DNA from: Primula veris | Taxonomy: Eukaryota; Streptophyta; Magnoliopsida; Ericales; Primulaceae | Direction of reading: 5' to 3' | Length of the DNA: 64,000 bases | Assembly: GCA_963682055.1 (NCBI GenBank) | Contig: OY821745.1 | Coordinates: 20,519,342 to 20,583,341 of the forward strand | Shown here: one piece after another, positions 5,661 through 6,289 of the stretch | Layout: each line of letters opens with the position of its first letter | Numbering within the stretch: the first letter of the stretch is position 1 | Notes under the pieces: model-generated | What the model saw: the letters and a program-made list of their open reading frames with translations, nothing else | Databases searched by the model: none | Told to the model about the DNA's origin: nothing | Program-made: the position numbers and the translations under genes

Positions 5661-5765
5661 GACTCGTCGGCAGTTTCTGGCGAGTCATCTGACACGTTGT
5701 ACCTTGGGATCGAAGCGCCAACGCAACCAGAAACATCAAGGTGGTTGGGCGAATATCGGTTAAGA
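5661..5765 (+). promoter_or_regulatory. structured LTR leader with candidate self-primer
   Basis: Three elements lie in order. First is a stem GACTCG (5661-5666) / CGAGTC (5681-5686). Second is a stem AACCA (5725-5729) / TGGTT (5742-5746). Third is the motif GAATATCGGTTAAGA (5751-5765), the exact reverse complement of 6275-6289 just after the LTR. The relative at 62.2-62.5 kb keeps both stems and the motif with paired changes. Inference: the motif primes minus-strand DNA synthesis. Confidence 0.6.
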
Positions 5766-6274
5766 GCATACTGTTAACAGTAGCCTCGTCTTATTTTAAT
5801 TTTTCATTTCTGTCCATTTTCAATTATGTTATTTAATTTCCGCAATTTACTTTTCTGTATTTTTTAATTCGGTATTTTAATTTACAGTACCTAACTGTAG
5901 CTTTTCTATTCTGTTTGTACCTTTCAGTAATTAGTTTAAAATTCTGTTTTTGCTGTAATTACTATTCTGTAATTTAATTCAGTAATTAGAATAGTTTCAA
6001 TTCAGTCCTGTACTTTCAATTTAAAACAGAACAGTCCGGCTGTTAAGTCTATACTTTCCAGTCCGGCAGTTTCTATTTATTGCAATTCAGTACATCATAT
6101 TATTAATTGATAATAATCTGATAACGTTTGCTTTAATTACGTTTCAGTACCTACATGTTGTAATCATTAATTTCTGTACCAATTCGAAATTAATAAAGAT
6201 TACACTGGTTTTGTTTATTCTTGTTTAGTCCTTTATTTATTGTTAATTGTTATTTCGTACACGGAAACCAACAA

Positions 6275-6289
6275 TCTTAACCGATATTC
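6275..6289 (+). promoter_or_regulatory. primer-binding position of element A
   Basis: TCTTAACCGATATTC begins two bases after the LTR end, where the primer-binding site must lie. It does not resemble the initiator-Met tRNA complement (TGGTATCAGAG) seen in element B at 11456. It is an exact 15-nt complement of 5751-5765 in the LTR of the same element. Confidence 0.65.

What the first reader, a model, noticed from the sequence alone, without database searches (positions are those of the whole stretch)
5751..6289. Primer-binding site complementary to the element's own LTR: candidate self-priming in a plant Ty1/copia element
In element A the bases where a tRNA should prime (6275-6289) are an exact 15-nt reverse complement of 5751-5765 inside the 5' LTR. 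They bear no resemblance to the initiator-Met site that the neighbouring element B has. In Tf1 of fission yeast the mRNA 5' end folds back on the primer-binding site and primes. Here the motif lies about 220 nt after the TATA box, so the primer would be a longer leader fragment or the true start is nearer. I do not know of this being described for plant copia elements.
Basis: partly seen in the sequence, partly recalled or inferred. Interest (0 to 1): 0.88.

Follow-up and report, generated by a model that had tools for sequence, protein, structure and literature searches.

The report
Plant retrotransposon carrying its own primer
A family of plant jumping genes carries, inside the start of its own RNA, a predicted hairpin whose end matches the site where DNA copying should begin, and the two change together between families, so these elements likely prime their own copying instead of borrowing a host tRNA.

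Summary
In detail: 5751-5765 is the exact reverse complement of 6275-6289; 0 of 3000 shuffled LTRs reach 15 nt. The claim that this is undescribed in plant copia elements is wrong: Neumann 2019 (PMC6317226) predicts self-priming for the TAR lineage. New here: (1) the constant match is a 10-nt core, 2 nt after the LTR end. (2) It covaries: families A, C and D have LTR cores AUCGGUUAAG, AUCGUUUAAG and AUUGUUUAAG, each 10/10 with its own PBS, 8-9/10 with the others. The D site was predicted from its LTR, then found; 10 of 10 fetched D junctions carry the pair. (3) The LTR core is the 3' strand of a covarying hairpin about 230 nt past the TATA box, not the RNA end as in Tf1. (4) The PBS sits in the loop of a predicted hairpin spanning the LTR junction. 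(5) In A, the bases just past the PBS core are more variable than any other window tested and ignore relatedness, as if re-made at each jump. Likely mechanism: self-priming from inside the leader. Cleavage and priming are inferred; no RNA or cDNA was seen.

The parts
4920..6273 (+). 5' LTR of element A (TGTTGG...CCAACA)
5523..5533 (+). TATA-like box CTATAAATAGG; predicted RNA start about 25-35 nt further on (inferred)
5632..5767 (+). structured leader domain, model R1
5660..5687 (+). hairpin I of the domain
5708..5761 (+). primer hairpin: lower stem 5708-5713/5756-5761, internal loop AAUA 5752-5755, upper stem from 5716-5719/5748-5751
5755..5764 (+). primer core AUCGGUUAAG; predicted primer 3' end after G5764 (inferred)
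6192..6197 (+). AATAAA, possible poly(A) signal, so R would include the core (inferred)
   Evidence: read
6257..6309 (+). predicted junction hairpin that holds the PBS in its loop
   Evidence: z -2.88
6276..6285 (+). PBS core CTTAACCGAT, 2 nt after the LTR end
6286..6290 (+). hypervariable pocket
21101..22495 (+). 3' LTR of element A; motif 21973-21986 is GAATATTGGTTAAG
33138..34402 (-). 5' LTR of element A'; primer core 33601-33610
33126..33135 (-). PBS core of A' (CTTAACCGAT), followed by pocket ACTC
26531..27972 (-). 3' LTR of element A'
61972..62513 (+). 5' LTR of element C (start approximate, from BLAST); its 3' LTR lies outside the window in L052
62204..62342 (+). leader domain of C; primer core AUCGUUUAAG at 62330-62339
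62516..62525 (+). PBS core of C, CTTAAACGAT

Best explanation
These plant copia elements most likely prime reverse transcription with their own RNA: a 10-nt stretch of the LTR-encoded leader (5755-5764), the 3' strand of a predicted conserved hairpin, is exactly complementary to the primer-binding site 2 nt past the LTR (6276-6285) and is predicted to be cut after G5764 and to anneal there. Shown by sequence: the exact complement; its kept pairing through coordinated change in families A, C and D; stem pairs of the primer hairpin changed on both sides; and a hypervariable 3-5 nt pocket just past the core in family A. Predicted by folding: the primer hairpin itself and a hairpin at the LTR junction that holds the site in its loop. 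Inferred: the RNA starts about 200 nt upstream, near the TATA-like box; the core leaves its local hairpin and pairs with the loop; an RNase H or similar nuclease cuts after G5764; minus-strand DNA starts there, copies back at least to the cut and jumps to the R region of the 3' LTR; plus-strand synthesis copies the core and up to about 4 further bases, then stops near the upper stem of the primer hairpin (or at a processed primer 5' end), leaving the pocket as its scar.
For: Exact 15-nt complement, 0 of 3000 shuffles. Own-family core pairs 10/10, cross-family 8-9/10. Perfect core pairs in 22 of 25 A, 11 of 12 C and 10 of 10 D elements. D PBS predicted from its LTR (noted), then 827 pattern matches against 3 for the reversed pattern (pattern covers C, D and E forms), and 10 of 10 fetched D sites carry the LTR partner, which was not part of the selection. 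Hairpin covariation. PBS-loop hairpins in A, A', C and D, none in B. PBS starts at the same 2-nt offset as B's tRNA site. Pocket re-made in A. L068, LTRs 98.7% identical but pol only in fragments, keeps the pair.
Against: No RNA, cDNA or start-site data. A copies were found with a query that holds both sites, so their 22 of 25 is biased upward; C and D sites were chosen by the PBS. Folding the whole leader gives the core:PBS pairing probability 0.55 in A but 0.01 in A' and 0.00 in C. Primer-hairpin folding z-scores are modest (-1.72, -1.23, -2.41), and two of five covariation measures are not above shuffles (40 and 439 of 500 reach them). L029 and L031 (one near-identical pair) have a core mismatch; L044 lost the motif; L032, L035 and L038 have rearranged or partly deleted domains but an intact PBS core. 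The nearest outside relative L001 (56% RT identity) has neither a TGG site nor a self-complement above 6 nt (7 with G-U). Host tRNAs were not searched.
Confidence: 0.8

Rival explanations
1. A host RNA (a tRNA fragment or another small RNA) is the primer, and the LTR motif only masks or regulates the PBS.
For: The contact could act as a regulatory fold: probability 0.55 in the folded leader of A. Half-tRNA primers exist in other plant copia lineages (PMC6317226). Host tRNAs could not be searched.
Against: PBS and LTR core change together in three families, which a fixed host RNA does not explain; no TGG at the site; best of 15 recalled plant tRNAs 9 of 14, longest run 7.
Confidence: 0.1
2. Tf1-type self-priming: the RNA starts at about 5755, so that the core is the RNA 5' end, and the pocket comes from untemplated bases added at the end of the template.
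For: Tf1 and Tj1 use the mRNA 5' end (PMC4600332); faithful matching falls off after 10-14 nt.
Against: TATA-like box 232 nt upstream in A and about 210 nt upstream in D (L053, read); the domain in between has paired changes, as if transcribed.
Confidence: 0.07
3. The matching stretches are a chance or leftover inverted duplication with no function.
For: A single copy with a short match could be this; for C alone 4 of 3000 shuffles match its 12 nt.
Against: It sits exactly where element B has its tRNA site; coordinated change in three families; the pair is intact in a recently moved copy with decayed genes; no tRNA site is present.
Confidence: 0.03

Closest known systems
Plant Ty1/copia TAR lineage with predicted self-primer (Neumann et al. 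2019, PMC6317226; includes Houba and Osr-1)
   Same: Plant copia element; LTR complement of at least 10 bp starting 0-5 bp past the LTR; no tRNA site.
   Different: The paper's main text predicts by complementarity only in what I read; here covariation, a primer hairpin, a looped PBS and a variable pocket are added. Lineage of A not tested by a tree. Supplements not open to me.
Tf1/Tj1 (Ty3/gypsy) self-priming
   Same: Primer comes from the element's own RNA and pairs with the PBS; an RNA structure like the retroviral U5-IR stem-loop is reported for Tf1 (title seen in the reference list).
   Different: There the primer is the mRNA 5' end (passages of PMC4600332); here the core lies inside the leader. 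Copia, not gypsy. That Tf1's primer is 11 nt is recalled.
tRNA-primed copia elements (element B of this window)
   Same: Same 2-nt spacer between LTR end and PBS; a structured RNA whose 3' strand would anneal to the PBS.
   Different: B's PBS is TGGTATCAGAG, its longest anchored self-complement is 5 nt and its junction shows no hairpin (z 0.04).

Membership tests
Ty1/copia | Gag and integrase before RT | tested here: met
   A' frames: Retrotran_gag_2, rve, then RVT_2
TAR lineage (REXdb) | place in RT/RH/INT phylogeny | not tested
   no named lineage references were at hand
TAR lineage (REXdb) | self-primer: at least 10 bp complement starting 0-5 bp past the 5' LTR | tested here: met
   15 nt in A, 11 in A', 12 in C
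Tf1-type self-priming | PBS complementary to the mRNA 5' end | tested here: inconclusive
   core 232 nt past the TATA-like box argues against it; no RNA start mapped
Tf1/sushi (Ty3/gypsy chromovirus) | gypsy domain order with integrase after RT | tested here: not met
   integrase precedes RT
tRNA-primed elements | PBS complementary to a tRNA 3' end (TGG at its start) | tested here: not met
   site reads CTTAACCGAT, no TGG
half-tRNA-primed elements | PBS complementary to an internal tRNA half | tested here: inconclusive

The most novel reading that the evidence does not exclude
The LTR encodes a built-in stand-in for a tRNA primer: an internal leader hairpin whose lower stem opens so that its 3' strand pairs with a PBS held out in a second hairpin loop, and whose upper stem ends plus-strand copying as a modified base does in tRNA. 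Each jump then leaves a fresh 3-5 nt scar beside the PBS, a natural record of one reverse-transcription event in each genomic copy.
Probability: 0.5. Interest if true: 0.85.

Novelty: new variant of a known kind. Interest (0 to 1): 0.74.

Why it matters
In what I could read, self-priming in plants rested on complementarity alone. Covariation in three families, with one PBS predicted and then found, turns it into a testable mechanism with defined RNA parts. Because the core appears to lie inside the leader and not at the RNA end, it raises the questions of how a primer 3' end is cut from the middle of an RNA and what stops copying of it. The variable pocket would be a per-insertion footprint of reverse transcription readable from genome sequence alone.

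Tried and rejected
Rfam: no family in the leader (one hit, E 0.15, other strand, 25.5 bits against a cutoff of 67). Relatives by DNA pattern or RT protein: none in viral contigs; the domain pattern found nothing in genome contigs, the RT search there gave 17 loci, which I take for eukaryotic contaminants; L003-L006 show an initiator-Met-type site; none of the 17 carries the domain at E 0.01 or better (best E 3.8). L001 has no clear PBS of either kind. Plasmids: 4 records with distant RT. Six LTR hits followed up for missing 5' junctions (L054-L059) showed no PBS junction in the 10 kb fetched for each. The pairing stretch was first taken as 14-15 nt; the copies cut it to a 10-nt core. A modified-base or A-to-I reading of the pocket was considered and dropped: nothing beyond a C/T bias opposite the two A's of the loop. 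Folding of the whole leader does not settle the pairing. Structure prediction and fold search of proteins were not used.

Full report
What is there. The window holds copia element A on the + strand (5' LTR 4920-6273, 3' LTR 21101-22495), interrupted by tRNA-primed element B (10199-19899); a second copy A' on the - strand (5' LTR 34402-33138, 3' LTR 27972-26531); and a distant relative C (5' LTR about 61972-62513, 3' LTR just outside in L052). LTR pairs differ at 94 of 1353 sites in A and 35 of 1265 in A'; C's are 90.2% identical. A' keeps two long frames with Gag and integrase, then RT domains, separated by a stop.

The observation. 5751-5765 is the exact reverse complement of 6275-6289 and each is unique in the window. 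In 3000 dinucleotide shuffles of the LTR the longest complement anchored 0-5 nt past the LTR end was 12 nt, against 15 observed; element B gives 5. Both A and B leave two bases (AT) between the LTR's CA and their PBS, so the A site begins at C6276, where B has TGG (read).

Core and covariation. C pairs 12 nt with its own LTR but carries a matched change: LTR G to T and PBS C to A. From the own genome I took the 26 hits that cover the query to its end (24 from base 1, one from base 2, one from base 12) among the 41 listed for window 5751-6310; only 40 of 2122 candidates were scored. With A and A' that makes 28. Of all 28, 23 have a perfect 10-nt core pair (read). Dropping the second member of two near-identical pairs (L031, L034) and L044, which lost the motif, leaves 25, of which 22 are perfect. 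The query contains both sites, so this count favours intact copies.

A prediction that held. Divergent domains in L053 and L065 (family D) read ATTGTTTAAG in the LTR but had no PBS beside them; the expected PBS CTTAAACAAT was printed and noted as untested. The pattern CAACANTCTTANACRAT, which covers the C, D and E forms, gave 425 + 402 matches against 1 + 2 for the reversed pattern; both the C and the D form are frequent in the printed part of the list, and the E form CTTACACRAT does not appear in that part. I fetched the first ten + strand sites of each of the C and D forms listed on contig C1. All ten D sites have LTR core ATTGTTTAAG; nine of ten C sites have ATCGTTTAAG and one (L089) has a single mismatch. 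With the window's C and L068, C is 11 of 12. All 20 fetched sites carry the leader domain. Most common cores: own pairs 10 of 10, cross pairs 8 or 9 of 10.

The RNA domain. 5632-5767 lies in a conserved island (A vs A' identity 0.84-0.95 in 5640-5799, with 0.42-0.59 in the windows next to it). It is not the only one: 5000-5119 and 5960-6039 are as conserved (0.90-0.97), and those were not studied. The domain folds into two hairpins; in five copies of A, A' and C 5 pairs change on both sides and 98.5% of cells pair, reached by 1 of 500 shuffles each. For the primer hairpin in ten copies of A, C, D and E (nine distinct): 90% of cells paired (slid versions at most 45%), 11 cells changed on both sides, 0 of 500 shuffles as high; but 40 of 500 shuffles reach the 5 pairs changed on both sides and 439 of 500 the number of further pair types, so the support comes from cells and covariation score. 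Folding z-scores of the hairpin alone are modest (-1.72, -1.23, -2.41). The core is the 3' strand of this hairpin plus the AAG tail. The family-specific core changes are therefore matched twice: in the hairpin partner strand and in the PBS. The two pairings exclude each other, which suggests a switch (inferred). Folding the whole leader gives the core:PBS pairing a probability of 0.55 in A, 0.01 in A' and 0.00 in C, so the local hairpins usually win without help.

The PBS hairpin. The PBS lies in the loop of a predicted stem made of the LTR end and the leader just after the PBS (A z -2.88, A' -2.86, C -2.21, B 0.04). Four D junctions form the same shape from a different stem sequence (z -2.60, -2.50, -1.61, -4.58); three further C copies score -2.08, -1.41 and -1.87. 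Seven of the 20 fetched junctions were folded.

The pocket. Just past the core lie 3-5 bases that differ between most A insertions: 16 versions among 25 copies, with 5.3% of pairs sharing, lower than any of 679 other 4-base windows in the same alignment (0 of 679; the same holds if only the first four bases are used, 6.3%). Near relatives (41 pairs under 6% apart) share it no more than distant ones (2.4% against 5.6%), while the 52 other variable windows show on average 3.5 times more sharing among near pairs. The two pairs under 2% apart share it. Bases past the core match the element's own LTR complement in declining measure: A 23, 11, 16, 16, 3, 1 of 25 at PBS positions 11-16; C 12, 12, 9, 10, 1, 3 of 12; D 9, 9, 7, 3, 1, 0 of 10. 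The drop falls at the base of the upper stem of the primer hairpin. My reading, inferred: plus-strand copying of the primer becomes unreliable in the AAUA loop and stops at that stem, and the ragged end is fixed at second strand transfer. Alternatives are a processed short primer, or weak constraint with a high mutation rate; weak constraint alone does not explain why near relatives share no more than distant ones. The first four bases of the pocket are less varied in C (3 versions in 12 copies) and D (6 in 10), and I had no tRNA-primed family of this genome as a control.

Is it cis-acting? C-family copy L068 has LTRs 98.7% identical, yet its pol matches A' only in fragments (32-56% identity), so it looks like a non-autonomous element moved in trans that still keeps the 10-nt pair.

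Cases against. L029 and L031 (one near-identical pair) carry ATCCGTTAAG against CTTAACCGAT; L039 and L042 have one G-U in the core; L044 lost the LTR motif. L032, L035 and L038 have rearranged or partly deleted domains with an intact PBS core. L054, an LTR without a PBS in view, ends its core in T. L001, the nearest outside relative, shows no self-complement above 6 nt and no TGG.

What is known. Neumann et al. 2019 (PMC6317226; section 13 in full and passages of other sections) report self-priming as predicted for 12% of plant LTR elements, name TAR as the copia lineage predicted to use it, and credit an earlier proposal for Houba and Osr-1. They used a blastn test of at least 10 bp of complement 0-5 bp past the LTR, which A meets. 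Their supplements were not open to me. Eight full-text searches (listings seen; passages seen in PMC3601003, PMC4600332, PMC5501947, PMC6762207, PMC12786077, PMC4659654 and PMC2206039) showed me nothing on covariation, a primer hairpin or a variable pocket in such elements. That library lacks most subscription journals, so this is not proof of absence.

Verdict. What is new is the evidence and the anatomy: an internal leader hairpin as likely primer source, a PBS predicted to be looped out, coordinated change in three families including one predicted in advance, and a pocket that looks re-made at each jump.

Noticed in passing
4915-4919 and 22496-22500: The 5-bp flanks of element A do not match (CAAAT / AAAAG), unlike A' (ATAAA both sides): possible recombinant or mutated target site.
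   Followed up: partly
10199-19899: Element B is nested in A; its LTRs hold repeated palindrome-like AAACGACCGATCGTTT units, also seen near 50887.
   Followed up: no
24721-25656: Long arrays of a 21-bp repeat (TGTATGCACTTTT type) in two opposite orientations.
   Followed up: no
52448-52825: Tandem 60-nt repeats, open in two frames.
   Followed up: no
44787-56898: A second LTR-like direct repeat pair about 11.4 kb apart with long frames between.
   Followed up: no
L068:472-6987: Young C-family element, LTRs 98.7% identical but pol only in fragments: likely non-autonomous and moved in trans.
   Followed up: partly
L065:7314-7455: A fifth, weakly scoring domain (family E, core ATCGTGTAAG) without a PBS in view.
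   Followed up: partly
window 5000-5119 and 5960-6039: Two further islands in the LTR as conserved between A and A' as the leader domain; function unknown.
   Followed up: no
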